From the NCBI GenBank assembly GCA_020160935.1, contig JAIUPL010000040.1, forward strand, positions 1 through 40,940: a DNA stretch of 40,940 nucleotides, in the 5' to 3' direction. Shown piece by piece: positions 1 to 40,940 of the stretch. The position numbers and the translations under genes were made by a program. A model generated the notes under the pieces. The model saw only the letters and a list, made by a program, of their open reading frames with translations, was not told the origin of the DNA and ran no database searches. Positions within the stretch are counted from its first letter, which is position 1. Each line of letters starts with the position of its first letter. Source of the DNA: Bacteroidota bacterium (lineage in GTDB: Bacteria > Bacteroidota > Bacteroidia > Chitinophagales > Saprospiraceae).

Positions 1-268
1 GAGAAGTTGAGGGGTTGAGAAGTTGAGGGGTTGAGAAGTTGAGGGGTTGAAAGGTTGAGATTTAGCCACTCACATGATGCAAAAAAACCTCTTATGCTAC
101 TGAGTGCAGAATCTCAACCTTTCAACCCCTCAACCTTTCAACCCCTCAACTTCTCAACCCCTCAACTTCTCAACCCCTCAACTTCTCAACCTTTCCCGAG
201 CCGCCAGCCTGAAAAACCCATCACCCCTTACCCGCGCTAATAACCAATAACTTAATAACCGATAACTA
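1..268. repeat. Composite inverted-repeat element E1 (TTGAGGGG arms), cut by window start
   Basis: A purine-rich arm of TTGAGGGG/TTGAGAAG units (1-60) is followed by a 51-nt core (61-111) beginning TTTAGCCACTCACATG. A complementary CTCAACCCC arm follows (112-198), then an outer block with CCCGAGCCGCCAGCCTG (about 199-235) and an AT-rich outermost block of TAACCAATAAC type (237-268). Read on the minus strand the outermost block begins TAGTTATCGG, and its TAG is the stop codon of the DUF1460 gene. The left outer layers lie beyond the window. The core is identical to that of the element at 20223-20525. Confidence 0.9.
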
Positions 269-1126
269 TTTCAGTCTCGCCACCATAATTCCCGTCTGCC
301 CTTTCTGGCTGATGACGTAGGTGGACAAGGGTTGTTTGGAAACAATTACCCGGTGAGAAAGGGAGGAGGCGTGCATGAGGTGGGTGCGGCCGTTGATTTT
401 CACGGCAAAGCCCTGGTGCGCAATATCCAGATCGCCTTTGGCGGAAGTGAGCGACACAATATCACCTTCCTGAATCAGGTGTTCCATTTGGGCGATACGG
501 TTCTGTGGTATAAAGTACCACTTGTGCGCATTGAGCCGCTGTTCGGCGGCTTGCAGATCGCGTAGGGCTTTCGGGTCTTTTATTTTGGGAAATTTGGCAG
601 GCCGTGCAGAAATGTACCCGATGGTTTTGCGGTACGGAATACCGCCCATTTTCTGGGTAAGGTCTTCCAGAATGCCATTTTTTTCGGCCTGCAACAACCA
701 GCCGGTGAAATAGTGAATCCGCGAACCATATCCATTGATATGACCACCCCAGTAGCGCAGTTTTTGCAGATGCTCCTGGTAATCTTCAAAATCGCCCTGC
801 TCCGTTTGGGCAATAGCCAGGCTGTTTTCCACAAAAGTCCAGCAATCGAGTTCGCGCAGGTTGACGGTCAGCAATTCTTCCTGATAAGAATCCAGACGTC
901 CTTTTACATATGGCGCACCCAAAAACGAGCGTGCAATAGCCAGCGTACGCGCAGCAATAGGTGCATGATCGACCGCAATCTTTTGTTTTTCCTGAAAAAT
1001 CACGGAATCCCGATCGGATTTGATGACCAGCGGGCCGCCCTTCATCAGGTCCGACAGGTCAGTAGTCGGCGGCAAGGGGATCATGCCGCTGAGCAGAAAA
1101 CAGAGTAGAAAACCAAATGATCTCAT
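266..1126 (-). CDS. DUF1460 family protein, probable secreted N-acetylmuramoyl-L-alanine amidase-like hydrolase
   Basis: 286 aa. An N-terminal hydrophobic stretch (residues 1-20) looks like a signal peptide, so the protein is probably exported. Motifs typical of the DUF1460 family, a papain/NlpC-like fold, are visible: LDCWTFVE with the presumed nucleophile Cys95, RIHYFTGW near residue 137, DIAHQGFA with a candidate catalytic His at 237, and LMHASS after it. Proteins of this family are thought to act on peptidoglycan peptides or amide bonds; activity here is inferred. It lies downstream of nupC on the same strand, but a long palindrome fills the 156-bp gap, so co-transcription is doubtful. 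Its stop TAG is the first triplet of a repeat element. The ATG at 1126 gives a good signal peptide and is preferred. Confidence 0.85.
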   Translation of the reverse strand: MRSFGFLLCFLLSGMIPLPPTTDLSDLMKGGPLVIKSDRDSVIFQEKQKIAVDHAPIAARTLAIARSFLGAPYVKGRLDSYQEELLTVNLRELDCWTFVENSLAIAQTEQGDFEDYQEHLQKLRYWGGHINGYGSRIHYFTGWLLQAEKNGILEDLTQKMGGIPYRKTIGYISARPAKFPKIKDPKALRDLQAAEQRLNAHKWYFIPQNRIAQMEHLIQEGDIVSLTSAKGDLDIAHQGFAVKINGRTHLMHASSLSHRVIVSKQPLSTYVISQKGQTGIMVARLK

Positions 1127-1130
1127 AATA

Positions 1131-1285
1131 TAAGTCGTAAGTCCTGAGTCCTGAGTCCTGAGTCCTGAGTCCTGAGTCCGTAGAGTACACCTGATTACCC
1201 TTGACTTAAGTTATTAGTAAAAGACAAGGGTAATCAGGTGTACTCTACGGACTCAGGACTCAGGACTTACGACTCAGGACTCTTA
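1131..1285. repeat. Composite inverted-repeat element E2 (GAGTCCT arms)
   Basis: The left arm is a GTCCTGA tandem array (1131-1175). A perfect 28-bp stem follows: 1176-1203 pairs with 1225-1252 around a 21-nt loop, and it contains GTAGAGTACACC. The right arm returns as GGACTCA units and ends at the nupC stop (1283-1285). Read in the nupC sense direction the element begins GAGTCCTGAGTCGTAAGTCC directly after TAA. The left array has more units than the right, which suggests slippage. It sits between nupC and the DUF1460 gene and might act as a strong terminator hairpin, although there is no clear U tract. Confidence 0.9.
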
Positions 1286-2527
1286 AAAAAGAATCCCTGC
1301 TAATGCAGCAGACAAATAACTTGCCAAAGTACCCGCAATCAGCGCCCGGAAACCCAGGCGCGCCAGGTCTTCACGGCGGCTTGGCTCCAGGGCTGAAATG
1401 CCGCCGATCTGAATACCTACCGAACCGAAGTTGGCAAAACCGCACAAGGCAAAACTCACGATTGCGATGGTTTTGGGAGAGAGAGTGGCTTGATCGATAA
1501 AAGGTTTCAATTGCAGGTAGGCCACAAATTCGTTGGCCACCAGTTTGGTGCCCATCAGTGCGCCTGCCTGCGGGGCTTCATGCCAGGGCACACCCATCGT
1601 CCAGGCGAAGGCTGCAAAAAGGCCGCCAAGAATGGTATTCAGACCAAATTCCGGATGACCGGCCAGGCCGCCGAGGGCTCCAAGAATGTAATTGATCAGC
1701 GCGATCAGTGCCAGAAAACCCACGAGCATGGCCAGTACATTGAGGCCCACTTTCAGGCCGTCGGAGCAGCCGGCGGAAATGGCATCCACGATATTGGAGT
1801 GTTGCTTGCCCACTTTGAGTTTCACACTTCCCTGTGTTTCAGGCTCTTCCGTTTCAGGGTGCATGATTTTGGCAATGGCCAGCGCGCCCGGCGCCGCCAT
1901 GATACTGGCCGCAATCAGGTACTCGGCTTTTACACCAAACAGGATATACGTAGCCATCACACCGCCTGCGATACAGGCAAAACTGCCGGTCATGGATGCC
2001 ATGAGTTCCGATTTGGTCATACCTTTCAGGTAAGGTTTGATCATGATCTGCGCCTCTACCTGTCCCACAAATGCGCTGGAAATATTGCTCAATGCTTCGG
2101 CGCCGCTCACTTTCATGAAGTAGTTCATGCCCTTGGCAAGTTTTTCCACGATCCACTGCATGAGTCCGATGTGGTAGAAAATATTGACCAGACAGGCTAC
2201 AAAAATGATGGTAGGAATAATGCGGAAGAAAAAGATAAAACTGTTTTCCGGGCCGAAGTACTGTCCGAGTTTGGGGCTGTCGGCCAGGATGCCGAATACG
2301 AATTTGGCCCCCTCGTCGGAAAAACTCAGCACCTTGGTAACGGCTTTTCCCAGCCATTCGAAAATGGATTTGCCCACCGGCGTTTTCAAAATGAACACCG
2401 CCAGAAGCGCTTGTATGAGCAAGCCCATACCGACAGTCCGGTAATTGATTTTCTTGCGGTTATTTGATAACAAATAAGCCGTACCTAAAATGAGCACAAT
2501 ACCCAGGATACCGATCAGTCGCTCCAT
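1283..2527 (-). CDS. nupC: Concentrative nucleoside transporter, NupC/CNT family
   Basis: 414 aa polytopic inner-membrane protein that should import nucleosides by cation symport. CNT signatures are present: GTKLVANEFVAY (residues 326-337) and a GQVEAQ segment near residue 155 that matches the GQ-x-E nucleoside-binding loop of the family. The re-entrant and core helices carry many Gly and Ala residues, and the C-terminal block CGFANFGSVGIQIGG (362-376) is typical. Length is normal for the family. Val stands where characterised CNTs often have Thr or Ser in the GQ-x-E loop; this may reflect lineage or substrate preference. It is transcribed divergently from uridine kinase, a sensible uptake-and-trapping pair. 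The stop is followed at once by a GAGTCC palindrome. Confidence 0.93.
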   Translation of the reverse strand: MERLIGILGIVLILGTAYLLSNNRKKINYRTVGMGLLIQALLAVFILKTPVGKSIFEWLGKAVTKVLSFSDEGAKFVFGILADSPKLGQYFGPENSFIFFFRIIPTIIFVACLVNIFYHIGLMQWIVEKLAKGMNYFMKVSGAEALSNISSAFVGQVEAQIMIKPYLKGMTKSELMASMTGSFACIAGGVMATYILFGVKAEYLIAASIMAAPGALAIAKIMHPETEEPETQGSVKLKVGKQHSNIVDAISAGCSDGLKVGLNVLAMLVGFLALIALINYILGALGGLAGHPEFGLNTILGGLFAAFAWTMGVPWHEAPQAGALMGTKLVANEFVAYLQLKPFIDQATLSPKTIAIVSFALCGFANFGSVGIQIGGISALEPSRREDLARLGFRALIAGTLASYLSAALAGILF

Positions 2528-2839: not shown

Positions 2840-3463
2840 ATGAAACCATTCGTAATCGGCATCTGCGGCGGCAGCGGCAGCGGAAAAACGACCTTCATCA
2901 AAAGGTTGCGCGAGCGCTTCAACACCACGGAAGTCTGCATTGTGTCGCAAGACGATTATTACCTACCCCGCGACCAGCAGCACAAGGACCACAACGACGA
3001 GTACAACTTCGACCTGCCCAAGTCGTTCGATAAAAAGAAATTCCGCAGCGACCTGCAAAAACTGATGCACGGACAAACCGTTACCATCGAGGAATACACC
3101 TTCAACAACCCCAATGCGAAACCAAAATTATTGGTGTTCGAACCTGCTCCGATTATCATCATCGAGGGTTTGTTTGTTTTCCACTATAAAAAAATTGCTC
3201 CCCTGCTCGACCTCAAGGTTTTTATCAATGCCAAGGAAAACCTGAAAGTCATCCGCCGCATCCACCGCGACCAGGTGGAGCGCGGCTACCCGATCGAAGA
3301 TGTGTTGTACAAATATGAACACCATGTGCTGCCTTCCTTCGAGCGTTTCATCCAGCCCTACAAGGAAGAGGCCGATATTGTGGTGAACAACAACTACGAT
3401 CTGGAACGTGGCCTGCAGGTGGTGGAAGGATTCCTTCGCAGTAGATTATCAGTTATCAGTTAA
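2840..3463 (+). CDS. udk: Uridine kinase
   Basis: 207 aa cytosolic kinase of the nucleoside salvage pathway; it phosphorylates uridine and cytidine with a nucleoside triphosphate. A Walker A loop, GGSGSGKT (residues 10-17), sits at the N-terminus. SQDDYY near residue 36 matches the conserved substrate Asp region of uridine kinases. IIIEGLFVFHY (about 110-120) is the conserved EG(I/L) block, and RRIHRDQVERGYP forms the lid with its arginines. Length is normal. The last residues (SVIS) and the stop TAA are encoded by TTATCAG repeat sequence, so the C-terminus has been reshaped by the adjoining element. It is divergent from nupC and has a strong promoter upstream. Confidence 0.95.
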   Translation: MKPFVIGICGGSGSGKTTFIKRLRERFNTTEVCIVSQDDYYLPRDQQHKDHNDEYNFDLPKSFDKKKFRSDLQKLMHGQTVTIEEYTFNNPNAKPKLLVFEPAPIIIIEGLFVFHYKKIAPLLDLKVFINAKENLKVIRRIHRDQVERGYPIEDVLYKYEHHVLPSFERFIQPYKEEADIVVNNNYDLERGLQVVEGFLRSRLSVIS

Positions 3464-3609
3464 CTGTTATCGGGGAAAAGGGCGCCATCTGTGGTTATGT
3501 ATGGGTAGCCAAACACCTGAATACTCCTTCGCTTCCTGCCCGAGTTATCAAGAAATGGCAGCAATGTACCCCAACCACCCTGATAACCAATAACCAATAA
3601 CTGATAACT
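3446..3609. repeat. Inverted-repeat element E3 (TTATCAG / GATAACCAATAAC arms)
   Basis: The left arm consists of TTATCAG units (3446-3475), overlaps the udk C-terminal codons and supplies the udk stop. The right arm is CCCTGATAACCAATAACC-like (about 3578-3609) and ends just before the next start codon. The arms are only roughly complementary. They correspond to the outermost AT layer of the elements at 1-268, 20223-20525 and 28395-28721, but the inner layers are absent. The middle (3476-3577) shows no recognisable feature. Confidence 0.7.
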
Positions 3610-9296: not shown

Positions 9297-10247
9297 ATGA
9301 CAGAAACTGGAACTGTAGTGAAATCAACCGGCAGTTGGTACAATGTGCTGCTCGACACGGGTGTGGCTGTTTCCTGCCGTATTGTTGGAAAATTCAGGCT
9401 CGACGATATACCGCTGACCAATCCTGTTGCCGTGGGCGACCGGGTGGAGATTGCCCTCGAGGGCGACGGACAAGGTTTGATCAAAAAAATTCTGCCGCGT
9501 ACCAATTGTGTCGTGCGCCAGTCGCCCCGCCGCAAGCACGACCTGCATTTGCTGGCATCCAACATCGATCAGGCTATTCTGATCGTCACCATCGTACACC
9601 CTACCATCAAACCCGGCTTTATAGATCGCTTTCTGGTGATGACCGAGCGCGATGAAATTCCCGTGACGATCATTTTTAATAAATGCGATTTGTACGATGC
9701 CGAGGATATGGAGCGCTACGAGGAGTTAAAATCGATTTACACCAAAATCGGGTATGGCGCGCTGCTTACCTCTGTGCTGCAAAACGTTGGTTTGGAAGAC
9801 TTTAAACACTTGTTGAAAGATAAAACTACGCTCATCAGCGGACAATCGGGTGTGGGTAAAAGCAGCCTTGTCAACGCTATTCAGTCGCAACTGGAACTGC
9901 GTACCGGTGAAATCAGCGATTATTCCGGCAAAGGGCAGCATACCACCACTTTTGCCGAAATGTTCGAACTCGACTTCGGCGGCCGACTCATCGACACGCC
10001 GGGCATCAAAACCCTGGGCTTCAACGATAAAGACAAGGCCAATATCGCTCATAGTTTCCGCGAATTTTTTGCCCTTTCCGACGATTGCAAATTTGGCGGC
10101 GCCTGCCTCCACCGCAACGAACCCGGCTGCGCCGTACACGAAGCCCTACGCCAGGGCGAAGTGAGCGAACAACGCTATATGAGTTATCTGAGTTTGCTGG
10201 AAGAAGCGGAAGACCAGAATTATTGGGAAAGGAATAAGGAATTTTGA
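9297..10247 (+). CDS. rsgA: Ribosome small-subunit-dependent GTPase A
   Basis: 316 aa GTPase that aids late 30S ribosome maturation. The circularly permuted GTPase order is evident: NKCD (residues 128-131, G4) comes before GQSGVGKSS (182-190, G1), a threonine-rich G2 loop with GQHTTT, and DTPG (233-236, G3). An OB-fold domain precedes it (about 1-75). A C-terminal zinc knuckle uses Cys264, Cys270, His272 and Cys278. It lies close behind the mutase gene and is probably co-transcribed. Its TGA overlaps the first GAGTCC unit of the following palindrome. Length is normal. Confidence 0.96.
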   Translation: MTETGTVVKSTGSWYNVLLDTGVAVSCRIVGKFRLDDIPLTNPVAVGDRVEIALEGDGQGLIKKILPRTNCVVRQSPRRKHDLHLLASNIDQAILIVTIVHPTIKPGFIDRFLVMTERDEIPVTIIFNKCDLYDAEDMERYEELKSIYTKIGYGALLTSVLQNVGLEDFKHLLKDKTTLISGQSGVGKSSLVNAIQSQLELRTGEISDYSGKGQHTTTFAEMFELDFGGRLIDTPGIKTLGFNDKDKANIAHSFREFFALSDDCKFGGACLHRNEPGCAVHEALRQGEVSEQRYMSYLSLLEEAEDQNYWERNKEF

Positions 10248-10424
10248 GTCCTGAGTCGTAAGTCCTGAGTCCTGAGTCCTGAGTCCTGAGTCCTGAGTCC
10301 TAAGTCCTGAGTCCTAAGTCTGTAGAGTACACCTTGTTACGCTCGGTGCCCTGTTGGGTAAAGCCGAGCGTAACAAGGTGTACTCTACAGACTTAGGACT
10401 CAGGACTTACGACTCAGGACTCAG
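10245..10424. repeat. Composite inverted-repeat element E4 (GAGTCCT arms)
   Basis: It lies between the convergent rsgA and ABC ATPase genes and overlaps the end of both. The left arm begins at the rsgA stop with GAGTCCTGAGTCGTAAGTCC and runs through tandem TGAGTCC units. A perfect 36-bp stem (10311-10346 with 10364-10399) encloses a 17-nt loop and contains TGTAGAGTACACC. The right arm (to 10424) encodes the last ATPase residues SPES and its TAA on the minus strand. The left array is longer than the right. Confidence 0.92.
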
Positions 10425-12330: not shown

Positions 12331-12417
12331 GGGCACGGGGGAAGGGACAAGAGGCAAGGGGCAAAGAGCAAGGGGCAAGGGACAAGAGGCAAAGAGCAAA
12401 GAGCAAGAGGCAAATTG
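12331..12417 (+). repeat. Single-arm purine-rich array (GGGCAAGAGGCAAG units)
   Basis: Tandem, imperfect GGGCAAG/AGGCAAAGAGC units follow the stop of the PD40 gene on its coding strand. No complementary arm is found nearby. A CTCAACCCTCATCAAC array of a different family follows at 12453-12525. Similar single arms lie at 14344-14432 and 37882-37922, always purine-rich in the sense of the gene just ended. Confidence 0.8.
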
Positions 12418-12452
12418 GACAATTCATCGCAATTCCGGGGCACATGGGTTCT

Positions 12453-12525
12453 CCTCAACGCTCAACCCCTCAACCCTCATCAACTCTATCAACCTCATCA
12501 ACCCTATCAACTTTCATCAACCCCT
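12453..12525 (+). repeat. Single-arm CAACCCTCATCAAC array
   Basis: Tandem CTCAACCCC, CTCATCAAC and CTATCAAC units. They match the pyrimidine-rich right arm of the GTTGATGAGG elements at 23564-23689, 25838-25983 and 40043-40283. The matching left arm is missing. It ends just upstream of the DUF3467 promoter. Confidence 0.75.
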
Positions 12526-13460: not shown

Positions 13461-14345
13461 ATGAGGATTCAAATTCCATTCCTTACGCTTCTGGCAGCAT
13501 TGTCGCTGGCGTCCTGTGCGGTCAAACCAGTAGCCAATTTTACCACGCCAAGCGGCAAACTGGTGGCCCCTGCGGAGGTCACTTTTACCAATACTTCCCT
13601 GAAAGCCGAAACTTACGCCTGGGATTTCGGCGACGGCGGCACCTCTACCGAGGCCAGCCCTGTGCACCGATACACCCATTCCGGCAATTACACGGTGGTG
13701 CTCAAAGCCACCAAAGGCTCTAAAACTGTCACTCGCAAACAAATGATCCAGGTTACTGCTCCTGAACGCTGCCTTGTGGAAATCGAAACTGATTTCGGTA
13801 CCATGACAGCCGAACTTTACAATGCCACGCCCAAACACCGCGACAATTTCATCAAACTCGCCGAAGAAGGGTACTACAATGACCTGCTCTTCCACCGCGT
13901 CATCAACGGGTTTATGATTCAGGGCGGCGACCCCAATTCGCGCAATGCGCCGGCCGGCCAGGCACTTGGTTTTGGCGGCCCTTCGCACCTGATTCCTGCC
14001 GAATTTGTCGATTCGCTGGCCCACTTCAAGGGCGCCATCTGTGCAGCACGCACCAACAACCCGGAGAAAAAATCCTCGGGCTCGCAGTTTTACATCGTGC
14101 AGGGCGGTCCGGTTACAGACGAAACGCTCAATCAGATCGAAACCATGAAACGTTTCCACTACACGCCCGAACAGCGTGCGGAATACAAGGCAGTTGGCGG
14201 AACGCCGCACCTCGACCGCGATTACACCGTGTTCGGCCGCGTAATCAAAGGCCTGGATGTGATCGATAAAATTGCAACCACCGAAACAGCAGCCGGCGAC
14301 AGGCCTAAGAAAGATGTGAAAATGAAGGTACGGGTGATTAAGTAG
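13461..14345 (+). CDS. Lipoprotein with PKD domain fused to cyclophilin-type peptidyl-prolyl isomerase
   Basis: 294 aa. The lipobox LASC puts the acylated Cys at residue 19. A PKD-like beta-sandwich follows (about 25-105), with the marks AYAWDFGDGGTS-like (YAWDFGDGGTS) and VHRYTHSGNYTVVLKA. A cyclophilin domain then runs from about 108 to 294: FHRVINGFMIQGGDP holds the catalytic Arg, Phe and Gln positions, and SGSQFYIV is a further family block. It should isomerise prolyl bonds at the cell envelope while anchored to a membrane. A long insertion near 235-260 (MKRFHYTPEQRAEYK) is common in Bacteroidota cyclophilins. The PKD-cyclophilin combination is uncommon. The stop TAG runs into a GGCAAG array and then a terminator. 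Confidence 0.92.
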   Translation: MRIQIPFLTLLAALSLASCAVKPVANFTTPSGKLVAPAEVTFTNTSLKAETYAWDFGDGGTSTEASPVHRYTHSGNYTVVLKATKGSKTVTRKQMIQVTAPERCLVEIETDFGTMTAELYNATPKHRDNFIKLAEEGYYNDLLFHRVINGFMIQGGDPNSRNAPAGQALGFGGPSHLIPAEFVDSLAHFKGAICAARTNNPEKKSSGSQFYIVQGGPVTDETLNQIETMKRFHYTPEQRAEYKAVGGTPHLDRDYTVFGRVIKGLDVIDKIATTETAAGDRPKKDVKMKVRVIK

Positions 14346-14432
14346 GCAAGGGGCAAGAGGCAAGAGGCAAGAAGCAAGAAGCAAAAGGCAAGGGGCAAGA
14401 AGCAAGAAGCAAAAGGCAAGAAGCAATTGCCT
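14344..14432 (+). repeat. Single-arm purine-rich array (GGCAAGAAGCAAG units)
   Basis: Units of GGCAAGG, AGGCAAG and AAGCAAG start at the TAG of the PKD-cyclophilin gene and run for nearly 90 bp on its coding strand. No reverse-complementary arm follows. It ends 10 bp before the terminator at 14442-14480. Confidence 0.85.
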
Positions 14433-14441
14433 GAATATTTC

Positions 14442-14480
14442 ATCCCGAATACTGGTGGAAGCCGGTATTCGGGATTTTTT
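14442..14480 (+). terminator. Rho-independent terminator after the PKD-cyclophilin gene
   Basis: The 11-bp stem ATCCCGAATAC (14442-14452) pairs with 14465-14475 and extends inward by three pairs. A T tract (14475-14480) follows. The same ATCCCGAA stem start recurs in a hairpin at 24697-24730. Confidence 0.8.
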
Positions 14481-14582
14481 ATAAATGGAGGCTGTTTTTA
14501 AAAAAGGGACTGGCGCTTTCGTTCGACTTTTGAGAAACTGTTTTAAAACCCCTTTTATATAATGGTTATATTACCAAAAACA

Positions 14583-19367: not shown

Positions 19368-20225
19368 TTGAAAAAAGGATATATCGTCGCGCTGCTGATT
19401 TTTGTGGTGCTGCTGATCGACCAGGCTTCCAAATTTTATATCAAAACCCACTTCGAATACAATGAGGACGTCCTCATGGGCGGACTCGAATGGGCGCGCC
19501 TGCACTTCGTGGAAAATGAAGGCATGGCATTCGGCATTACGTTCGACTGGGAATACGGCAAACTGCTGCTGAGTTTGTTTCGAGTACTTATGGTGGCAGG
19601 TCTGATCTGGTACCTGCGGGTTTTGCTGGCTGCTGAAGTGGCTTTTGGCTTTACACTCAGCATCGGACTGATCACAGCCGGCGCACTGGGCAATATCATC
19701 GACAGCGCTTTTTATGCCCTGATTTTTTCCGCTTCCGGATACCACGGCGGTGTGGCCGAACTGACGGCTTTCGGACAAGGGTATGGCATGACACAGGAAC
19801 TTCCTTTCAACGGTTTTATGCACGGCCGCGTGGTGGATATGTTGTACTTCCCGATGACCTGGGTAAATATTCCCGACTGGGTGCCCGTTCTCGGTGGCGG
19901 GCAATACCTCTTTTTCAGCCCTATTTTCAATGTAGCCGACGCTTCCATTACGATTGGCGTACTGTGCATCGTGTTGTTCCAGCGTCGTTTTTTCCGCGAT
20001 GGTTTTGTACAAAATGAGACACCAGAACCAGCAACCCTGAACTGGGAAGACGCAGAAAAGCAGGACGAAGACGAAGCGCCGGCTTCTTCCGATTCGGATA
20101 TGGAAATTCAGGAGGATACTACGCCGGAGGAAAAACAGGCGGAACAAAACCCGGAAGACCTTCCACGATACAGCGACCAGCCTTCAGAAAGCGCACCGAA
20201 GCCGAACAACCATAACCTGCTTTAG
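19368..20225 (+). CDS. lspA: Lipoprotein signal peptidase with extended C-terminus
   Basis: 285 aa inner-membrane aspartyl peptidase that cleaves prolipoprotein signal peptides after diacylglyceryl transfer. The family blocks are in order: IDQASKFYI (about 17-25), VENEGMAFG (48-56), GNIID (108-112), GRVVD with catalytic Asp157, and FNVAD with catalytic Asp191. The probable start is TTG at 19368, since it opens the first helix directly and no ATG is in frame nearby. A Bacteroidota-type insertion (about 121-185) separates the third and fourth helices. Residues 215-285 form a Glu/Asp/Pro-rich tail beyond the usual 160-210 aa of the family. The window holds several lipoprotein clients. The stop TAG is the first triplet of a palindrome. 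Confidence 0.93.
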   Translation: MKKGYIVALLIFVVLLIDQASKFYIKTHFEYNEDVLMGGLEWARLHFVENEGMAFGITFDWEYGKLLLSLFRVLMVAGLIWYLRVLLAAEVAFGFTLSIGLITAGALGNIIDSAFYALIFSASGYHGGVAELTAFGQGYGMTQELPFNGFMHGRVVDMLYFPMTWVNIPDWVPVLGGGQYLFFSPIFNVADASITIGVLCIVLFQRRFFRDGFVQNETPEPATLNWEDAEKQDEDEAPASSDSDMEIQEDTTPEEKQAEQNPEDLPRYSDQPSESAPKPNNHNLL

Positions 20226-20525
20226 TTATCGGTTATTAGTTATTGGTTATCAGGGTGGTAAGGGGTGATGGGTTTTTCAGGCTGCGGCTCGGGAAAGGTT
20301 GAGGGGTTGAAAGGTTGAGGGGTTGAGGGGTTGAGGGGTTGAGGAGTTGAGGGGTTGAGATTTAGCCACTCACATGATGCAAAAAAACCTCTTATGCTAC
20401 TGAGTGCAGAATCTCAACCTTTCAACTTCTCAACCTTTCAACTTCTCAACCCCTCAACCTTTCCCGAGCCGCCAGCCTGAAAAACCCATCACCCCTTCCC
20501 CCCTGATAACCGATAACTATACTCA
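20223..20525. repeat. Composite inverted-repeat element E7 (TTGAGGGG arms), complete copy
   Basis: Nested layers are visible from the outside in: an AT block TAGTTATCGGTTATTAG (from 20223), a GC block with GGGTTTTTCAGGCTG and GGCTCGGG (20252-20296), TTGAGGGG units (20297-20360) and a 51-nt core (20361-20411). The complements then follow in reverse order (20412-20520). The core is identical to that at 61-111. The element fills the space between the convergent lspA and prfA genes. Its left edge contains the lspA stop, and its right edge, read as TAGTTATCGG on the minus strand, lies 3 bp from the prfA stop. Confidence 0.95.
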
Positions 20526-23563: not shown

Positions 23564-23689
23564 GGGTTGATGAGGGTTGATAAAGGTTGATGAGGGTTGA
23601 TATTCATCGGCTCGGTAGGGATCAATACTTTCTCATTTCGAGTGGCTGAATATCAACCCTCATCAACCTTTATCAACCCTCATCAACCC
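23564..23689. repeat. Composite inverted-repeat element E8 (GTTGATGAGG arms)
   Basis: A perfect 43-bp inverted repeat (23564-23606 and 23647-23689) encloses a 40-nt core with CTCGGTAGGGATCAAT. The right arm contains the last two codons and the TGA stop of the mntR-like gene. The core is related to those at 25883-25925 and 40106-40155, and read on the minus strand it opens with TTCAGCCACTCG. Confidence 0.93.
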
Positions 23690-24512: not shown

Positions 24513-24668
24513 CCGTAGAGTAGTTTCCCGCAGATGGCGCAGATTTTCCCGCAGATTTCCGCAGAACGTAGAGTACGCCATACAATCGTTTCAGAATATA
24601 CGGCGTACTCTACGTTCTGCGGAAATCTACGGGAAAATCTGCGCCATCTGCGGGAAACTACTCTACGG
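24513..24668. repeat. Inverted-repeat element E9 (CGCAGATTTTCC arms)
   Basis: A 67-bp arm (24513-24579) pairs with 24602-24668 with one mismatch around a 22-nt loop. The arm is built from CGCAGAT-TTTCC units and contains GTAGAGTA at its outer end and GTAGAGTACGCC next to the loop. It sits between the HTH gene and the mntR operator, about 100 bp from the HTH gene stop. Confidence 0.93.
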
Positions 24669-25837: not shown

Positions 25838-25983
25838 TTGAGGGTTGATGAGGGTTGATAAAGGTTGATGGGGGTTGATAATCAGCCACCCGGAATACGA
25901 AAGAATTGATCCCTACCGAGCCGATGATTATCAACCTTTATCAACCCTCATCAACTTTTTCATCAACCCTCATCAACCCTCAA
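25838..25983. repeat. Composite inverted-repeat element E10 (GTTGATGAGG arms)
   Basis: The left arm of TTGAGGGTTGATGAGGG units (25838-25882) and a longer right arm (25926-25983) surround a core beginning ATCAGCCACCC and ending CTACCGAGCCGATGAT. Compared with the elements at 23564-23689 and 40043-40283 the core is in the opposite orientation. The right edge contains the TGA of the lipoprotein gene (25980-25982). Confidence 0.88.
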
Positions 25984-27095: not shown

Positions 27096-28397
27096 ATGGA
27101 ATCCACCGAACCTTCTTTCTGGCAACGACAGGCCACCACCATCAAAGGCATATTGATATTTTTCCTGTTGCTGGTATTGCTCATCCCCACGTCTATGGTC
27201 GACAGTCTTATCAGCGAACGGCAGAGCAGGCAAGCAGAAGCCGTGGCCGAGGTAAGCAGCAAATGGGGGCAGAGCCAGACGCTGGCAGGCCCTGTTTTGA
27301 TCGTTCCCTATCAGGTCATACAACGCGCGGCTGACGGCAAGGAAATTGCCCGCGAAACCAAATACGCCTATTTTTTACCCGACGAACTCAACGTACAAAG
27401 TACGGTAAACCCCGAAAAACGCCACCGCGGCATTTTTGATGTCGTATTGTATTCCTCTCAAATTACGATGGAGGGCTCTTTTGCACAGCCCGTGCTGGCG
27501 TCGTTGGTGCCACCTGGCGCCGAAGTGCAGTGGAACAAAGCGGCGCTCGAATTCGGCATTCCCGACCTGCGGGGGCTCAAAGACCAGGTAACGCTTCAAT
27601 GGAATGAACAGCAGCGGGTATTCGAACCCGGCATTCCGATTCCGGGCGTGGCCGGCAGTGGTATACATGTGGCACTGGCACTCGACCCTGTGGGCACTGC
27701 CGCGCATCGTTTCCGCATCAATGTGGCCCTGAAAGGCTCGGGGTCGCTGTTTTTCACCCCGTTGGGCAAAGTAACGACCGTAAAAATGAACTCGCCCTGG
27801 GCTGATCCGAGTTTTACCGGTGCTTTTTTGCCCGATGAAAAAAATATTTCCGCATCCGGTTTCGACGCCTCCTGGAAAGTGCTCAACCTGAACCGGAATT
27901 ATCCGCAGCAGTGGAACAGCGACCAGACCGTTTCGATAGAGGAAAGCACCTTTGGTGTGGATTTTATCCTTCCGGTAGATAATTACCAGAAATCGACCCG
28001 CTCGGTGAAATATGCCATCCTGTTTATCGGCCTCACTTTCCTCACCGTCTTTTTTGTGGAAATGCGGCAGGAACGCCCGGTGCATCCGTTCCAGTATGCC
28101 CTCATTGGGCTGGCCCTGGTCATTTTTTACACCTTGCTGGTAGCGATTTCCGAGCAGGTGCCTTTCAATGCAGCCTACCTGATTTCGGCCCTCATGACGA
28201 TCGGGCTGACCGGCCTGTATGCCAAGGCCTTGTTTGAGTCGGGGCGCATGGCGCTGCTCGTCAGTGGTGCACTTACAGTGTTGTACGGTTTCCTTTTTGT
28301 GGTGCTGCAACAACAAGACTACGCGCTGCTGATCGGAAGCCTCGGCCTGTTCGTGATTCTGGGTGTAGTCATGTATTTCTCGCGAAGAATCGTTTAG
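27096..28397 (+). CDS. creD: CreD-like inner-membrane protein
   Basis: 433 aa from the ATG at 27096; a GTG reading at 27003 lies upstream of the promoter and is rejected. The first helix (about 18-36) is followed by a large periplasmic domain with WGQSQTLAGPVLIVPY, typical of CreD, and then a block of six helices from about residue 310 (ILFIGLTFLTVFFVE, onward). CreD is known from Enterobacteria and Stenotrophomonas as a target of the CreBC system with effects on envelope stress and beta-lactamase. Bacteroidota carry it without CreBC; the role here is uncertain. The stop TAG opens element E11. Confidence 0.9.
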   Translation: MESTEPSFWQRQATTIKGILIFFLLLVLLIPTSMVDSLISERQSRQAEAVAEVSSKWGQSQTLAGPVLIVPYQVIQRAADGKEIARETKYAYFLPDELNVQSTVNPEKRHRGIFDVVLYSSQITMEGSFAQPVLASLVPPGAEVQWNKAALEFGIPDLRGLKDQVTLQWNEQQRVFEPGIPIPGVAGSGIHVALALDPVGTAAHRFRINVALKGSGSLFFTPLGKVTTVKMNSPWADPSFTGAFLPDEKNISASGFDASWKVLNLNRNYPQQWNSDQTVSIEESTFGVDFILPVDNYQKSTRSVKYAILFIGLTFLTVFFVEMRQERPVHPFQYALIGLALVIFYTLLVAISEQVPFNAAYLISALMTIGLTGLYAKALFESGRMALLVSGALTVLYGFLFVVLQQQDYALLIGSLGLFVILGVVMYFSRRIV

Positions 28398-28721
28398 TTA
28401 TCGGGTGGTTATTGGTTATCTGTTATTGGTTATCAGGGGTGGGTAAGGGATGATGGGTGTTTCAGGCTGGAGGCTCGGGAAAGGTTGAGTTGGTTGAGAG
28501 GTTGAGTTGGTTGAGTTGGTTGAGAGGTTGAGTTGGTTGAGATGTTGATATTCAGCCACGCAGCAGCCGGAGTAAGGTTTTGGATCACATGAGTGGCCAA
28601 CCTCTCAACTCCTCAACTAACTCAACCTCTCAACCAACTCAACCTTTCCCGAGCCTCCAGCCTGAAACACCCATCATCCCTTACCCACCCCTGATAACCA
28701 ATAACCAATCACCAATAACTA
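28395..28721. repeat. Composite inverted-repeat element E11 (TTGAGTTGG arms), stop to stop
   Basis: It spans exactly from the creD stop (TAG, 28395-28397) to the mqnC stop (TAG on the minus strand, 28721-28719). Layers are an outer AT block TAGTTATCGG / TAGTTATTGG, a GC block (28439-28482 and 28645-28690) with GGGTGTTTCAGGCTGG, a TTGAGTTGG array (28483-28548 and 28599-28644) and a core (28549-28598) opening TTCAGCCACGC. Architecture equals that of 20223-20525, but the microsatellite unit and core differ. Confidence 0.95.
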
Positions 28722-30211: not shown

Positions 30212-31627
30212 ATGTCTTATATCATTCAAAAAGAAACTGCTTTTCAGCGCATCCGGCGCATTTTCCTGCAATCGCTGAAAGGCGAAGAACAGGACTACAC
30301 CACCGGAAGTATCGACCGCGCTATTGTATTGCTTGCCATTCCGATGATTCTGGAAATGGCTATGGAATCTTTATTTGCCGTAGTAGATGCTTTTTTTGTA
30401 GCAAAAGTCGGCGTGGAAGCCGTTGCCACCGTAGGTCTTACCGAGTCGATGCTGACACTGGTGTATTCCATCGCCATCGGGCTGAGTGCGGCCGCAACAG
30501 CCATGGTAGCCCGGCGTATCGGCGAGGGCAATAAAGATGCAGCCGCAAAAGCCGGCGCACAGGTCATCTTGATCGCTTTGGCGCTGTCGGTTTTGATTGC
30601 GGTGCCGGGTTATTTCTATGCAGAAGACCTGTTGCGCCTGATGGCCCACGATACGAGTGTGTCGAGTACAGGCTTTCATTTTACGCGGCTGTTGCTGACG
30701 GCCAACCTGCCCATCTTGCTGCTCTGGATGCTCAACGGTATTTTTAGGGGTGCCGGCGATGCTGCCACAGCCATGCGAGCCTTGTGGATTGCCAATGCGG
30801 TGAATATCGTACTGTGCCCCTTGCTGATATTTGGCTGGGGGCCTATTCCGGCTATGGGTGTCATCGGTTCGGGTATCGCCACCACCATCGGGCGCTCGAG
30901 CGGGGTTATTTATCAGTTGTGGAACCTGTTTGAAGTGGGCAAAATTGTGCGTTTGCGCTGGAATATGCTGAAACCCAAATGGGACATTATCGGCAGCCTG
31001 CTGAAAATCGCTTCGGGCAGCACCGGCCAGTACCTGATCGCTTCGGCCAGTTGGATCTTCATGATTTTTATCCTGGGCCGCATCGGCAAGGAAGTGACCG
31101 CCGGTTACACTATTGCTATACGTATTGTAGTGTTTACCATTTTGCCTTCCTGGGGTATGGCCAATGCAGCCGCCACACTGGTTGGGCAAAACCTGGGCGC
31201 CGGCCATCCCGAACGGGCTGAAAAATCGGCCTGGCGGGCAGGTTTTTTCAATATGATTTTCATGGGAACGGTCGGCATCTGCTACCTGATTTTTGCCCCC
31301 TCCCTGATCCGCATATTTACGGACAACCCGCAGGCCATCCAGTCGGGCGCGCTTGCTTTGCGCATTATCGCCGGTGGTTATGTGTTCTATGGCTGGGGTA
31401 TGGTACTGACACAAGCCATCAATGGCGCCGGCGATACCCGCACCCCGACCCTTCTCAACTTCATCTTTTTCTGGATGGTCGGTATGCCGCTGGCCGTTTT
31501 GCTGGCCCTACACCTCGGCTGGGGCCAAACGGGCGTGTACTGGAGTATCTTCACCAGCGAATCGTGTATGGCCCTGGCAGCCATGTGGGTGTTCAGGAGA
31601 GGGCGGTGGAAGACGGTGAAAGTGTAG
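30212..31627 (+). CDS. MATE family efflux transporter
   Basis: 471 aa from the ATG at 30212 (MSYIIQKETAF). Starts at 30179 (ATG) or 30113 (TTG) are possible but would add residues with no family match. Twelve helices are visible; the first begins near AIVLLAIPMILEMAMESLFAVV (seen as IPMILEMAMESLF) with the family pattern, and the second half repeats it. MATE proteins export drugs or metabolites using Na+ or H+. Internal GVIGSGIATTIGRSSGVI (part of loop and helix 6) is in the usual place. The branch is not clear enough to name a substrate. It converges on the ogt-like gene, and both stops form the edges of element E12. Confidence 0.92.
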   Translation: MSYIIQKETAFQRIRRIFLQSLKGEEQDYTTGSIDRAIVLLAIPMILEMAMESLFAVVDAFFVAKVGVEAVATVGLTESMLTLVYSIAIGLSAAATAMVARRIGEGNKDAAAKAGAQVILIALALSVLIAVPGYFYAEDLLRLMAHDTSVSSTGFHFTRLLLTANLPILLLWMLNGIFRGAGDAATAMRALWIANAVNIVLCPLLIFGWGPIPAMGVIGSGIATTIGRSSGVIYQLWNLFEVGKIVRLRWNMLKPKWDIIGSLLKIASGSTGQYLIASASWIFMIFILGRIGKEVTAGYTIAIRIVVFTILPSWGMANAAATLVGQNLGAGHPERAEKSAWRAGFFNMIFMGTVGICYLIFAPSLIRIFTDNPQAIQSGALALRIIAGGYVFYGWGMVLTQAINGAGDTRTPTLLNFIFFWMVGMPLAVLLALHLGWGQTGVYWSIFTSESCMALAAMWVFRRGRWKTVKV

Positions 31628-31797
31628 TGGTGAGTAGTGAGTGGTGAGTGGTGAGTAGTGAGTAGTGAGTGGTGAGTAGTGGGTGGTGAGTAGTGTTGTT
31701 TTTAGCCACTCTTTTGAAGAAACCAAAAGCAACGTGAGTAAAACTCACCACTCACTACTCACCACTCACTACTCACCACTCACCACTCACCACTCTA
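31625..31797. repeat. Composite inverted-repeat element E12 (GTGAGTAGTGA arms), stop to stop
   Basis: It spans exactly from the MATE stop (TAG, 31625-31627) to the methyltransferase stop (TAG on the minus strand, 31797-31795). Arms are GTGAGTAGTGAGTGGTGAG arrays (31628-31695 and 31743-31794) of similar units. The core (31696-31742) opens GTTGTTTTTAGCCACTC and carries an inner GTTG/CAAC pairing. TTTAGCCACTC is shared with the cores at 61 and 20361, although the arms are unrelated. Confidence 0.93.
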
Positions 31798-34228: not shown

Positions 34229-34560
34229 TCAGACGCGCCTTACGGCGAAGATTAAGATAAGACGCGCCTTGCGGCGCTATGGGGTTTGGGATTGGGCGGA
34301 TAATGCGGATTAAATAGATTTATATTTCAATATTACTTTGGTATAACAGGTGTACGCTACGATTTGTGTCCTTTGTGCAACCTTTGTGGAATTCGTGGTA
34401 AAAAATTTAACCACAACGGACACAAAGGTTGCACAAAGGACACAAATCGTAGCGTACACCTGTTTCAATGGAATATCTCAAAACGAATAATCCAGCAAAA
34501 TCCATTTTATCCGCATTATCCGCCCAATCCAAAGCCCCATAGCGCCGCAAGGCGCGTCTC
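34229..34560. repeat. Nested inverted-repeat element E13 (GCGCCTTGCGGCG outer, TTTGTGTCC inner)
   Basis: The outer 55-bp arms (34261-34315 and 34504-34558) pair with about three mismatches; they begin GACGCGCCTTGCGGCGCTAT and contain GGATTGGGCGGATAATGC. The inner 44-bp arms (34345-34388 and 34421-34464) are perfect and hold AACAGGTGTACGCTACG and CCTTTGTGCAACC. An extra GACGCGCCTTACGGCG unit precedes it at 34231-34246. Outer-arm relatives form the truncated element at the window end. It lies between lepA and the lactonase-like gene, both on the plus strand, so here a 3' end and a 5' end share the space. Confidence 0.92.
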
Positions 34561-34591
34561 ATCCATCCCACAAGTAAAAATCAATTTTCCA

Positions 34592-37881: not shown

Positions 37882-37922
37882 GTTGCCCCTTGTCTCTTGC
37901 CCCTTGCTCTTTGCCCCTTCTC
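37882..37922 (-). repeat. Single-arm purine-rich array (GGGGCAAGAG units)
   Basis: Read on the minus strand, GGGGCAAAGAGC and GGGGCAAGAG units follow the response regulator stop (37924-37926) within a few bases. No complementary arm is present. It has the same polarity relative to the ended gene as the arrays at 12331 and 14344. Confidence 0.8.
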
Positions 37923-37923
37923 A

Positions 37924-38556
37924 CTATCTCTCCCCTCTCATTTTATTCAACGCTTCCGTCCTCGTCTGCACATGCAGTTTTTCATAAATGTTGTGGATAT
38001 GTCTCTTTACCGTTTCGATGCTGATAAATAGTTCGGCGGCAATTTCTTTGTACAGATAACCTTTTGCCAGCAGGTCGAGAATTTCTTTTTCCCGCGCTGT
38101 GAGTACGGCCAGTTCAGGAACAGGTTCCGGTTTTTTTTGAAATGAGGCTACGACGCGGCGAGCGATTTCGCTGTTCATCGGAGAGCCGCCCTGATGCAGA
38201 TCGTGCAGGGCTTCCAGCAGTTTTTCCGGCGAAGTGCGCTTTAGCAGGTATCCATTGGCGCCTGCCTTGAGGGCATTGAAAATGTGTTCGTCGTCTTCAT
38301 ACACGGTACACATAGTGATTTGCAAGGCAGGCAATTGCTCTTTGAGTATTCTCACCGCATCAATACCGCTCATGCCCGGCAGGTGAATATCCATGATCAC
38401 CACATCCGGTTGGACCGCAACAATTCCTGTCAGGGCAGCCTCTGCATTGTCATAAGATGGCAGGCATTCAAATTCGGGCACACTGCCGATAATGGTTTCA
38501 AATGACTGCCGGATATCAGCGTCATCTTCAACTATGGTCACTCGGATAGGCTTCAT
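37924..38556 (-). CDS. NarL/FixJ-type response regulator
   Basis: 210 aa DNA-binding regulator. The receiver (about 1-120) has the acidic pair in EDDADIRQSF (Asp11, Asp12), the phospho-acceptor Asp56 in IMDIHLPGMSG and the conserved Lys in YLLKR. A LuxR-type helix-turn-helix follows (about 145-205): LTAREKEILDLLAKGYLYKEIA, shown as LTAREKEILDLLAKG, and ISIETVKRHIHNIYEKLHV, typical of the family. It should pair with the TPR kinase whose gene lies just downstream. A perfect -7 box is upstream, and next to it begins the 66-bp palindrome shared with the divergent cytochrome operon. Confidence 0.95.
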   Translation of the reverse strand: MKPIRVTIVEDDADIRQSFETIIGSVPEFECLPSYDNAEAALTGIVAVQPDVVIMDIHLPGMSGIDAVRILKEQLPALQITMCTVYEDDEHIFNALKAGANGYLLKRTSPEKLLEALHDLHQGGSPMNSEIARRVVASFQKKPEPVPELAVLTAREKEILDLLAKGYLYKEIAAELFISIETVKRHIHNIYEKLHVQTRTEALNKMRGER

Positions 38557-38590
38557 TGTGGAGGATTTGGACGTGAATGGTTTGTGGTGT

Positions 38591-38598
38591 CAAATGTA
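38591..38598 (-). promoter_or_regulatory. -7 element for the response regulator gene
   Basis: TACATTTG on the minus strand is a perfect TAnnTTTG box about 35 bp upstream of the ATG at 38556. The -33 position falls at the edge of the palindrome at 38621 and has no clear TTTG. Confidence 0.55.
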
Positions 38599-38620
38599 CA
38601 CAGCGCCGGGCGAGTGAGGG

Positions 38621-38806
38621 AATCACCCGTTTGTTGTATTTGACGGAGTCCTGAGTCGTAAGTCCTGAGTCCTGAGTCTGTAGAGTACACCTACTCATGT
38701 TTAGCCATGCTAAATAAGGATGCCTAAAGTAGAACGGTCAACTCTACAGACTCAGGACTCAGGACTTACGACTCAGGACTCCGTCAAATACAACAAACGG
38801 GTGATT
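38621..38806. repeat. Composite inverted-repeat element E15 (GAGTCCT arms), perfect 66-bp stem
   Basis: The 66-bp arm 38621-38686 is exactly complementary to 38741-38806. Its outer 26 bp (AATCACCCGTTTGTTGTATT and six more) are not microsatellite and are not seen elsewhere in the window. The inner part is GAGTCCTGAGTCGTAAGTCC and related units, ending TGTAGAGT. The 54-nt middle holds TTTAGCCATGCTAAA. Unlike the other elements it lies between two divergent genes, reaching close to both promoters. Confidence 0.95.
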
Positions 38807-38836
38807 GTCTACCCCTTTCCCGCACCCCCACCTTTG
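38805..38836 (+). promoter_or_regulatory. Possible promoter for the small membrane protein / cytochrome c operon
   Basis: TTG (38805-38807) lies 21 bp before CACCTTTG (38829-38836), one mismatch from TAnnTTTG. The -33 box overlaps the end of the palindrome arm. Confidence 0.4.
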
Positions 38837-38873
38837 TCCTGTTCAAATTTCACCACCAAATCAATCTTTCAAC

Positions 38874-39065: not shown

Positions 39066-39092
39066 TGACAACAGCCTAAATCTGAAACACTT

Positions 39093-40040: not shown

Positions 40041-40042
40041 AT

Positions 40043-40283
40043 GTTGATGAGGGTTGATGAGGGTTGATGAGGGTTGATAAGGTTGATAAGGTTGATGAGG
40101 TTGATATTCATCAGCTCGGTAGGGATCAATTCTTTCGTATTTCGAGTGGCTGATTATCAACCCTTATCAACTCTTATCAACCCTCATCAACTCTTATCAA
40201 CCCTCATCAACTCTATCAACCCTCATCAACTCTATCAACCTCATCAACTCTATCAACCCCATCAACTCTTATCAACCCATTTC
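40043..40283. repeat. Composite inverted-repeat element E16 (GTTGATGAGG arms)
   Basis: The left arm consists of GTTGATGAGG and GTTGATAAGG units (40043-40105). The core (40106-40155) contains CTCGGTAGGGATCAATTC and is close to that at 23607-23646. The long right arm (40156-40283) contains CTTATCAACTC, CTCATCAAC and CTATCAAC units. The right arm is about twice as long as the left. It fills the gap between the cytochrome c stop and the NTF2-like gene. Confidence 0.9.
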
Positions 40284-40309
40284 ACTCACTTTCAATTTTT
40301 TTTCAACCA

Positions 40310-40783
40310 ATGAAAAACACTTTCTTTCACCTGCTTGCTTGCTGCGCATTCGCGCTGTTCACCCAAAACTCCTATGCTCAAACCGCCAAAGACGAAGCCG
40401 ATTTGAAAGGCTACTGGAAAGATGTTTGGGAGTCTTACGAATCCGGAAATACGGAAGCCATGTGGGCTGCCTACACCGAAGATGCCGCTGAAATCGGACC
40501 CGACGGTAGTTATGTTCAAGGTAAAAAAGCGCTTCGCGAAAACTGGGACATGATCATGAAAATGGTGGATGCACCCCCGAAATTCACCTACGAAAACCCT
40601 TCCGTTCGTTTCATCACGCCTGATGTGGCCATTCTCGTTTGGGATTCCAGTGCCGACATCAAAATAAAAGGACAGCAGGTAGGCGGGAAAACCAAGGGTA
40701 TGGCCTTAGCACACCGAACTGCCGGCAAATGGCTGATCGAATTTGATTCCATTACACCCGTGATCAGCATGCCCGGGAACTGA
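40310..40783 (+). CDS. Secreted NTF2-like (SnoaL/DUF4440) protein
   Basis: 157 aa. The first 23 residues, ending NSYAQ, are a signal peptide. The mature part starts with DLKGYWKDVWESYESGNTEA (about 30-50, given in part) and matches the SnoaL/DUF4440 cone fold: a first helix, then WAAYTEDAAEIGPDGSYVQGKKAL, and a later beta-sheet with AILVWDSSADIKIKGQQV (both given in part). The family includes isomerases, hydrolases and binding proteins; the pocket residues seen here do not decide among them. It stands alone after the cytochrome operon, and a repeat element separates them. The function is unknown. Confidence 0.82.
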   Translation: MKNTFFHLLACCAFALFTQNSYAQTAKDEADLKGYWKDVWESYESGNTEAMWAAYTEDAAEIGPDGSYVQGKKALRENWDMIMKMVDAPPKFTYENPSVRFITPDVAILVWDSSADIKIKGQQVGGKTKGMALAHRTAGKWLIEFDSITPVISMPGN

Positions 40784-40835
40784 TGAAGAGGGTGTTTTTG
40801 TGTGCTTCGCACTTGGGGTTGAGATGTTGGATGAG

Positions 40836-40940
40836 ACACGCCTTACGGTGCTGATAAAACGCGCCTTACGGCGCTATGGGGTTTGGGATTGGGCGGATGA
40901 TGCGGATTAAATGGATTTTGCTGAATTATTCGTTTTGAGA
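40836..40940. repeat. Inverted-repeat element E17 (GCGCCTTACGGCG family), cut by window end
   Basis: Short GACACGCCTTACGGTG and ACGCGCCTTACGGCGC units are followed by a stretch (40859-40940) that equals the reverse complement of the right outer arm of the element at 34229-34560 with few changes, up to CGTTTTGAGA at the window edge. The second arm must lie outside the window. Confidence 0.85.

What the first reader, a model, noticed from the sequence alone, without database searches (positions are those of the whole stretch)
1..40940. A family of composite inverted-repeat elements fills at least 13 of the intergenic spaces
Elements at 1-268, 1131-1285, 3446-3609, 10245-10424, 20223-20525, 23564-23689, 24513-24668, 25838-25983, 28395-28721, 31625-31797, 34229-34560, 38621-38806 and 40043-40283 share a plan: purine-rich microsatellite arm, short core, complementary pyrimidine-rich arm. 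A further truncated copy lies at 40836-40940, and single arms at 12331, 14344 and 37882. Arm units differ between loci but agree within a locus. Known REP/BIME or ERIC elements are shorter and have one conserved sequence, so this looks like a different class. No transposase or RAYT gene is in the window.
Basis: partly seen in the sequence, partly recalled or inferred. Interest (0 to 1): 0.9.

Follow-up and report, generated by a model that had tools for sequence, protein, structure and literature searches.

The report
Hairpin repeats filling gene ends
A group of related bacteria carries large numbers of long DNA hairpins, built from short repeated words, wedged right behind the ends of its genes; neighbouring species often hold a different hairpin at the same spot, which makes this a good natural system for studying how repeated DNA spreads and why the two halves of a hairpin keep matching.

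Summary
12 of the 13 listed elements pass a strict inverted-repeat test; the 13th is weak. In 841 kb of the same genome there are 154 such elements against 3 in each of five nulls. They sit at gene 3' ends (median 3 bp from the stop codon) and, relative to spacer numbers, are commonest between convergent genes. 128 of 154 sort into 15 families by unit. One GTAG-tagged palindromic module carries three different outer satellite arms here and a fourth in relative G006, so cores and arms are exchangeable. Arm pairs covary strongly. At orthologous spacers filled in both, relative G016 has an unrelated element in 15 of 17 cases, 4 of them with related units. Elements are dense in four close relatives, patchy in the rest of the genus, and not found in six genomes of other families. 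The closest known kind is the REPIN/BIME, but no Y1 (RAYT-like) gene examined has satellite-armed elements beside it, so membership fails there. Intrinsic termination is not supported. Best reading: dispersed REPIN-like hairpins with exchangeable arms kept complementary by arm-to-arm copying; dispersal enzyme unknown. New variant of a known kind.

The parts
1..268 (.). Composite: GGTTGAG arms around an AGCCACTC core (1-191) plus the right-hand TTATC-type outer arm (to 268); cut by the contig start
1133..1282 (.). Family A: GAGTCCT arms, GTAGAGTACACC inverted module, variable inner stem
3446..3609 (.). Family D (GGTTATC/TTATCAG arms), degenerate; between two + genes
   Evidence: not in the strict list
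10245..10424 (.). Family A between convergent genes (RsgA-like and ABC transporter ATPase-like)
12331..12523 (.). Lone G-rich GGCAAG array (12331-12413) followed by a C-rich array of another type (12462-12523); arms do not match each other
14344..14426 (+). Lone GGCAAG array starting at the stop codon of the + gene ending at 14345
20223..20525 (.). Composite: TTATC outer arms, GATGGGTTTTTCAGGCTG segment, GGTTGAG inner arms; fills the convergent spacer stop to stop
23564..23689 (.). Family B: GTTGATGAGG arms, AGCCACTC/GGCTCGG-type core
24513..24668 (.). Family J: CGCAGATT arms with CGTAGAGTACGCC module; same family at the same place in G028 with rearranged arms
25838..25983 (.). Family B
   Evidence: strict core 25844-25955
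28395..28721 (.). Composite D + C; fills the convergent spacer between a CreD-like and a CofH-like gene from stop to stop
31625..31797 (.). Family G: AGTGGTG arms; orthologous site holds family A in G028 and family B in G016
34229..34563 (.). Composite: outer CGGATT-type arms around an inner CACAAAGG-type palindrome (34345-34464) with the GTGTACGCTACG module
37883..37919 (-). Lone GGCAAG-type array just downstream of the - gene 37924-38541
38621..38806 (.). Family A inside an outer palindrome; three outer-arm changes are mirrored between own genome and G028
40043..40283 (.). Family B with unequal arms (about 60 and 125 nt)
40836..40940 (.). Truncated copy of the outer arm seen at 34256; cut by the contig end

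Best explanation
They are dispersed, non-coding hairpin repeats of REPIN/MITE type. A palindromic core (in several families tagged GTAG) is extended outwards by arms of 7-10 nt tandem units. Copies have accumulated right behind stop codons, where insertion does least harm. Several of the arm types stop translation in all three frames, because the unit length is not a multiple of three and the unit holds a stop triplet. The two arms of a copy stay complementary because one is copied from the other, most likely by template switching at the hairpin during replication. Arm arrays also grow by slippage and are exchanged or homogenised between loci, so species come to differ in arm type. Shown: dispersal in many copies, position, covariation, different arms on one core, site occupancy with family turnover. 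Inferred: copying by template switching, slippage, exchange of arms. Least certain: a single-strand (Y1/HUH) transposase as the disperser.
For: 154 elements in 841 kb against 3 in each null; median 3 bp to the stop codon and 67 bp to a start codon; 59 convergent elements in a sample with 84 convergent spacers of 60 bp or more, 69 tandem (241), 20 divergent (122), 4 in genes. Covariation on 25 family-A cores: 14 of 28 pairs with both-side changes, 57 cells against 21.8 +/- 4.0 shuffled, none of 500 as high, and 7-18 when the pairing is slid. Arm changes between own and G028 at the 3 orthologous A loci that could be compared: 8 mirrored of 84 positions, 2.1 expected (small). The GTAGAGT(A/G)(C/T)ACC module has GAGTCCT (44), GTGAGAG (6) and CGCAGA (4) arms outside it in the own sample and lies outside the CACAAAG repeats in 6; 1 other, 61 in all; GCGAAGT arms in 20 of 30 G006 occurrences, with intermediate units. 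Filled/empty orthologous pairs exist, e.g. own 3 bp against 165 bp in G028 at C43:108287 and own 44 bp against 207 bp in G016 at window 9253. 57 of 154 outer 5' arms stop all three frames, 11 of 154 3' arms.
Against: In 8 Y1 regions of the clade no satellite-armed family lies within 350 bp of the gene; 6 of the 8 have other palindromes there. No consistent target-site duplication; one possible case (G016 at C43:119518) was read by eye. Covariation alone cannot separate copying from selection on pairing, and related sequences inflate it. The inner stem at the 3 orthologous loci changes on both sides little more than chance (7 against 5.4, of which 3 mirror-paired). In the G016 sample the module occurs 4 times, never with GCGAAGT arms; GCGAAGT-armed elements there have other centres.
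Confidence: 0.5

Rival explanations
1. Selected 3'-end signals: the hairpins insulate convergent genes or protect mRNA 3' ends, so occupancy is kept while sequence turns over.
For: Convergent orthologous spacers: own filled 16, other filled in 16 of 16; own empty 16, other filled in 5 (p = 7e-5, two-sided). At permissive spacers in G016, leaving out same-family pairs: filled in 14 of 16 where own is filled against 3 of 16 where own is empty (one-sided p = 1.2e-4); also without the GAGTCCT-to-GCGAAGT cases 10 of 12 against 3 of 16 (one-sided p = 1.0e-3).
Against: No T-run after the elements (mean 2.5 T in 8 nt), and canonical terminators are about as frequent with an element (14 of 164 gene ends) as without (34 of 342). 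74 of 131 convergent pairs have no element. Permissive-site saturation would give the same conserved occupancy.
Confidence: 0.27
2. Pure mutation: slippage makes the arrays and template switching copies them in inverted form, without any mobility.
For: Lone arrays exist beside stops (35 array-stop pairs, 23 G-rich in sense, 12 C-rich); template switching can create and maintain hairpins (PMC8794818, abstract and outline read).
Against: Cores are shared and dispersed: 231 GTAGAGTACACC sites in the own genome against 0 for the reversed control.
Confidence: 0.12
3. Ordinary MITEs of one or more DDE transposases, with satellite arms as terminal inverted repeats.
For: Terminal inverted repeats, filled/empty sites, one possible direct repeat of the target.
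Against: No consistent target-site duplication; arms vary between copies, which terminal repeats recognised by a DDE enzyme should not; no transposase other than Y1 was searched for.
Confidence: 0.09
4. Chance or assembly artefact.
For: The window is a fragment whose two ends both lie in elements.
Against: Null gives 3 against 154; separate assemblies G028, G016 and G006 hold many and orthologous copies.
Confidence: 0.01

Closest known systems
REPIN / BIME (inverted REP doublets, Bertels and Rainey 2011, PMC3116915, passages read)
   Same: Conserved inverted ends around a variable, paired spacer; about 70 nt (71 bp in Pseudomonas; 66-69 nt in the family-A core here); compensatory changes; extragenic; high copy number.
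   Different: Satellite arms of 7-10 nt units outside the core; several arm types on one module; no RAYT found flanked by them; abut stop codons; stems up to 108 bp.
GTAG-tagged REPs (Di Nocera 2013, PMC3733652, passages read)
   Same: GTAG beside a palindrome; the own genome's Y1 gene at C29:2332 lies between two composite palindromes carrying GTAGTTGGCGAGGACGCCAACTAC.
   Different: GTAG REPs have stems of 5-13 bp and were reported in Proteobacteria, Cyanobacteria, Chloroflexi and the PVC group; only CGTC repeats were listed for Bacteroidetes.
Heptamer direct repeats such as TAACTGA (MacGregor 2015, PMC4679880, passages read) and, from memory, cyanobacterial STRRs
   Same: Heptamer units; the TTATCAG unit here is the complement of TAACTGA in another phase; intergenic; stops in three frames in one reading; reported in five Bacteroidetes.
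   Different: Those are direct arrays (170 sets, one of them inverted), mostly before start codons in that genome; here arms are paired around a core and follow stop codons.
Palindromic A/T microsatellites of Fusarium mitochondria (PMC7218506, passages read)
   Same: Microsatellite arms in palindromic order, optional between species, argued to be mobile.
   Different: Mononucleotide arms of 7-12 nt, organelle, 14-16 copies.

Membership tests
REPIN/BIME | Conserved sequence repeated in inverted orientation around a variable spacer | tested here: met
   25 family-A cores, outer 13 nt nearly invariant, inner stem variable; the cores were picked by a pattern for the module, so its conservation is partly by construction, the inverted order and 231 exact sites are not
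REPIN/BIME | Spacer pairs, with compensatory changes | tested here: met
   57 both-side-changed cells against 21.8 shuffled
REPIN/BIME | RAYT (Y1) gene present in the genome | tested here: met
   Two PF01797 matches over cut-off
REPIN/BIME | RAYT gene flanked by the same repeats | tested here: not met
   8 of the 9 Y1 matches of own, G028, G016 and G006 examined: none has a satellite-armed family within 350 bp, 6 have other palindromes there
REPIN/BIME | Extragenic, tens to hundreds of copies | tested here: met
   4 of 154 inside genes; 231 module sites genome-wide
GTAG REP | GTAG next to a local stem of 5-13 bp | tested here: inconclusive
   GTAG borders the core, but it was part of the search pattern, and the pairing is between distant arms, not a local hairpin
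MITE | Target-site duplication | tested here: inconclusive
   One possible case by eye; none evident in the other filled/empty pairs printed
MITE | Terminal inverted repeats shared with an autonomous transposon | not tested
   Only Y1 genes were searched
Intrinsic terminator | T-run directly after the stem | tested here: not met
   Mean 2.5 T in 8 nt; 14 of 137 ends with 5 or more
Rfam families | Score at or above a curated gathering threshold | tested here: not met
   0 matches in the window
STRR (cyanobacteria, definition recalled) | Direct tandem heptamers as the whole element | tested here: not met
   154 elements have paired arms; lone arrays also occur

The most novel reading that the evidence does not exclude
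A modular hairpin system: one palindromic core that changes its satellite arms between loci and species, holds particular gene ends as permanent addresses where families replace one another, and keeps the two arms identical by copying one from the other, so that a whole genome's gene ends evolve in concert. It may have become the host's way of separating convergent genes.
Probability: 0.3. Interest if true: 0.82.

Novelty: new variant of a known kind. Interest (0 to 1): 0.64.

Why it matters
Long palindromes are expected to be unstable in bacteria (recalled), yet here they make up about 3% of the DNA examined, and the count extrapolates to about a thousand copies per genome. Orthologous sites with different families, and one module with several arm types, give many natural replicates for two open questions: how non-autonomous hairpin repeats spread and are replaced, and whether complementarity is kept by selection or by template switching. 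They also warn that covariation by itself does not prove a functional RNA.

Tried and rejected
Stop codons of convergent pairs as a matched part of the palindrome: suggested by three species at window 31628, rejected by counting (22 of 57 same type, 19.7 expected; 24 of 74 in pairs without an element). Intrinsic terminators: rejected as above. RAYT dispersal: genus members without a Y1 match have 4 elements in 257 kb (7 genomes) and those with one, outside this clade, 18 in 380 kb (10 genomes); suggestive only, and the flank test failed. Loss of SbcCD as the permissive cause: own genome has no TIGR00619 match and 11 of 60 genomes are over the cut-off; G008 and G012, over the cut-off, have 1 element in 120 kb, but several genomes under the cut-off also have none, so it could be necessary at most. 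Insertion duplications: not consistent. One search assumed an orientation that many of its loci did not have and was replaced by the flank mapping. Literature: searches in the open library listed no description of these elements in Saprospiraceae; subscription papers are not covered. PMC8049555 was looked at in passages and not used.

Limits: gene calls are from my own hexamer scorer. The 841 kb sample is 14% of the genome and comes from four contigs known to be long, plus the window. Family labels come from hand-written patterns, and 26 of 154 elements got none. Family-A cores were picked by a pattern for the module (2 of 27 hits without GAGTC arms were dropped), so variants outside it are missed. 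'Unrelated' at 15 of 17 G016 sites is my reading of labels and local alignment; 4 of the 15 are GAGTCCT to GCGAAGT, which one search shows to be related units, so the test is also given without them; at one (window 34218) a label is shared although the alignment score is 8. Of the 4 unrelated G028 sites, C24:85791 (no labels) and C43:200383 (weak repeat in G028) are the less certain. The species comparisons share own sites and are not independent. The numbers of the last Fisher test were entered by hand.
Full report
What is there. The window is a whole contig (C16) of a 5.84 Mb genome in 51 contigs. Its nearest relative by the one protein compared, G028, has contigs of the same lengths as a named record, Saprospiraceae MAG-362, so the host is taken to be a member of that family (inference). 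12 of the 13 listed elements pass a strict inverted-repeat test; the 13th (3446-3609) is weak. The arms range from perfect heptamer arrays to long mixed stems up to 108 nt. Both ends of the contig lie inside elements.

Scale. I took 800 kb of the same genome in 20 kb stretches and added the window. With arms of at least 24 nt and 85% complementarity there are 154 merged elements, about 3% of the DNA, against 3 in each of five nulls in which intergenic DNA was resampled. Extrapolated, that is about a thousand per genome (inference). G028, G016 and G006 have 56 in 291 kb, 10 in 58 kb and 11 in 32 kb (the last two, and 51 kb of G028, chosen because they match the window). In 17 other genus members the pooled figure is lower, 22 in 637 kb, but uneven: G005, G022 and G023 have 3 in 20 kb each, eight have none in 20-60 kb. 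Six genomes of other families of the order have 0 in 160 kb.

Position. Element edges lie a median 3 bp from the stop codon and 67 bp from a start codon. By spacer class there are 59 elements against 84 convergent, 69 against 241 tandem and 20 against 122 divergent spacers of 60 bp or more; 4 lie inside genes and 2 were not classed. Convergent spacers without an element have a median of 28.5 bp (n = 74); with one, the DNA left outside the element has a median of 5 bp (n = 55), often negative because the arm runs into the coding end.

Anatomy. Hand-made unit patterns label 128 of 154 elements in 15 families; a sixteenth, GCGAAGT, has no exact match in the own genome and 183 and 88 in G016 and G006 (G028 not among the 40 genomes searched). 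Ten families (72 of 72 elements) have a G-rich, C-poor 5' arm; GAGTCCT, CACAAAG, CGCAGA and two small families do not show this. The commonest tandem period in spacers is 7 (138 of 326), and 53 of 326 are multiples of three. The outer 35 nt of the 5' arm stops all three reading frames in 57 of 154 elements, the 3' arm in 11; AGTGGTG, GTGAGAG, GAGTCCT and GTTATGAG arms do this best, GGCAAG and GTGTTTT arms hardly (0.25 frames on average).

Core and arms are modules. The module GTAGAGT(A/G)(C/T)ACC, inverted around a centre, has GAGTCCT arms outside it 44 times, GTGAGAG 6 and CGCAGA 4 in the own sample; in 6 more it lies outside CACAAAG repeats, the order being reversed (61 in all, 1 other). In G006, 20 of 30 examined carry GCGAAGT arms; 7 are labelled GAGTCCT by pattern, and the three of these printed show intermediate units such as AGTCCGAAGTC (20 loci picked because they hold the module, plus two others). 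In the G016 sample it occurs 4 times, never with GCGAAGT arms. Genome-wide, GTAGAGTACACC occurs 231 times in the own genome, 53 in G016, 41 in G006 and 0-7 in the other 22 genus members searched. The B unit is wider: 369 sites in the own genome, 220 in G016, 156 in G007, 81 in G006, 68 in G009, 26 in G022, 11 in G010. A longer family-A string was found in the 84,980-species collection only in MAG-362, with the note that the own genome may be left out.

Arms agree. In 25 family-A cores, 14 of 28 pairs show both-side changes, 57 cells against 21.8 +/- 4.0 in shuffles. Idiosyncrasies are mirrored: the base next to GTAG matches across the element in 23 of 25, and the rarer module variants occur on both sides in 6 of 8 cells where either side differs. 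At window 38542-38873 three neighbouring arm changes between own and G028 are all compensated. At the 3 orthologous A loci that could be compared, 8 of 84 arm positions changed in mirror fashion, 2.1 expected; the inner stem shows no clear excess (7 against 5.4).

Same place, different element. I mapped 168 orthologous spacers in G028 (107), G016 (58) and G006 (3) (here arms of 18 nt or more count as filled). Occupancy is shared: convergent 16/0/5/11 (both/own only/other only/neither; p = 7e-5), tandem 22/6/6/64 (p = 2e-11), divergent 3/2/7/26 (p = 0.10). Family identity is often not shared. Of 23 sites filled in own and G028, 4 hold unrelated elements (window 20226, 31628; less surely C24:85791 and C43:200383); of 17 filled in own and G016, 15 do. 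At window 31628 three species have three families with the coding sequence conserved up to the stop. For permissive spacers, without the same-family pairs, G016 is filled in 14 of 16 cases where own is filled against 3 of 16 where own is empty (one-sided p = 1.2e-4); without the related GAGTCCT/GCGAAGT pairs, 10 of 12 against 3 of 16 (one-sided p = 1.0e-3). This is expected if elements saturate the few harmless places, and also if the place needs a hairpin; the data do not decide.

Enzyme. Two Y1 (RAYT-like) genes exist in the genome. One (C29:2332) lies between two composite palindromes with a GTAG-tagged hairpin; the other has a different palindrome upstream. In 8 of the 9 Y1 regions of the four dense genomes none has a satellite-armed family within 350 bp; 6 have other palindromes there. 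A REPIN-like mode of spread is therefore plausible by anatomy (PMC3116915, passages; PMC6006769, passages, notes atypical structures for a Bacteroidetes subclass) but unproven.

Function. Intrinsic termination is not supported. E. coli REPs within 15 nt of a stop codon are reported to stall ribosomes (PMC12306157, passages), so an effect on translation or mRNA decay is open. Template switching can create and maintain hairpins (PMC8794818, abstract and outline), which is the basis for the copying step; it has not been shown here.

Verdict. The interpretation as a wholly different class is too strong: the core looks and evolves like a REPIN, while the exchangeable satellite arms, the family turnover at fixed gene ends and the lack of a matching RAYT are new as far as the searches named above show. 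New variant of a known kind, interest 0.64.

Noticed in passing
G000:C29:1898-3045: A Y1 transposase-like gene between two direct copies of a roughly 140 bp composite palindrome carrying GTAGTTGGCGAGGACGCCAACTAC: a REPtron-like arrangement.
   Followed up: partly
genome G000: No match to the SbcD model TIGR00619; most genus members searched have only a partial, sub-cut-off match to the N-terminal part.
   Followed up: partly
window 12331-12523: A G-rich GGCAAG array and a C-rich array of another type flank a short unique stretch: a non-complementary hybrid of two families.
   Followed up: no
window 14441-14482: A textbook intrinsic terminator next to a lone GGCAAG array; such terminators were found at only about one gene end in ten (48 of 506).
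   Followed up: partly
G016 at sites orthologous to C43:119518, C24:107822 and window 20226: Near-perfect hairpins sharing a tip GATGACT...AGTCATC but with site-specific lower stems, as if flanking sequence had been copied into both arms.
   Followed up: no
own 841 kb sample: All 72 elements of ten families have a G-rich 5' arm; the cause of this polarity is unexplained.
   Followed up: partly
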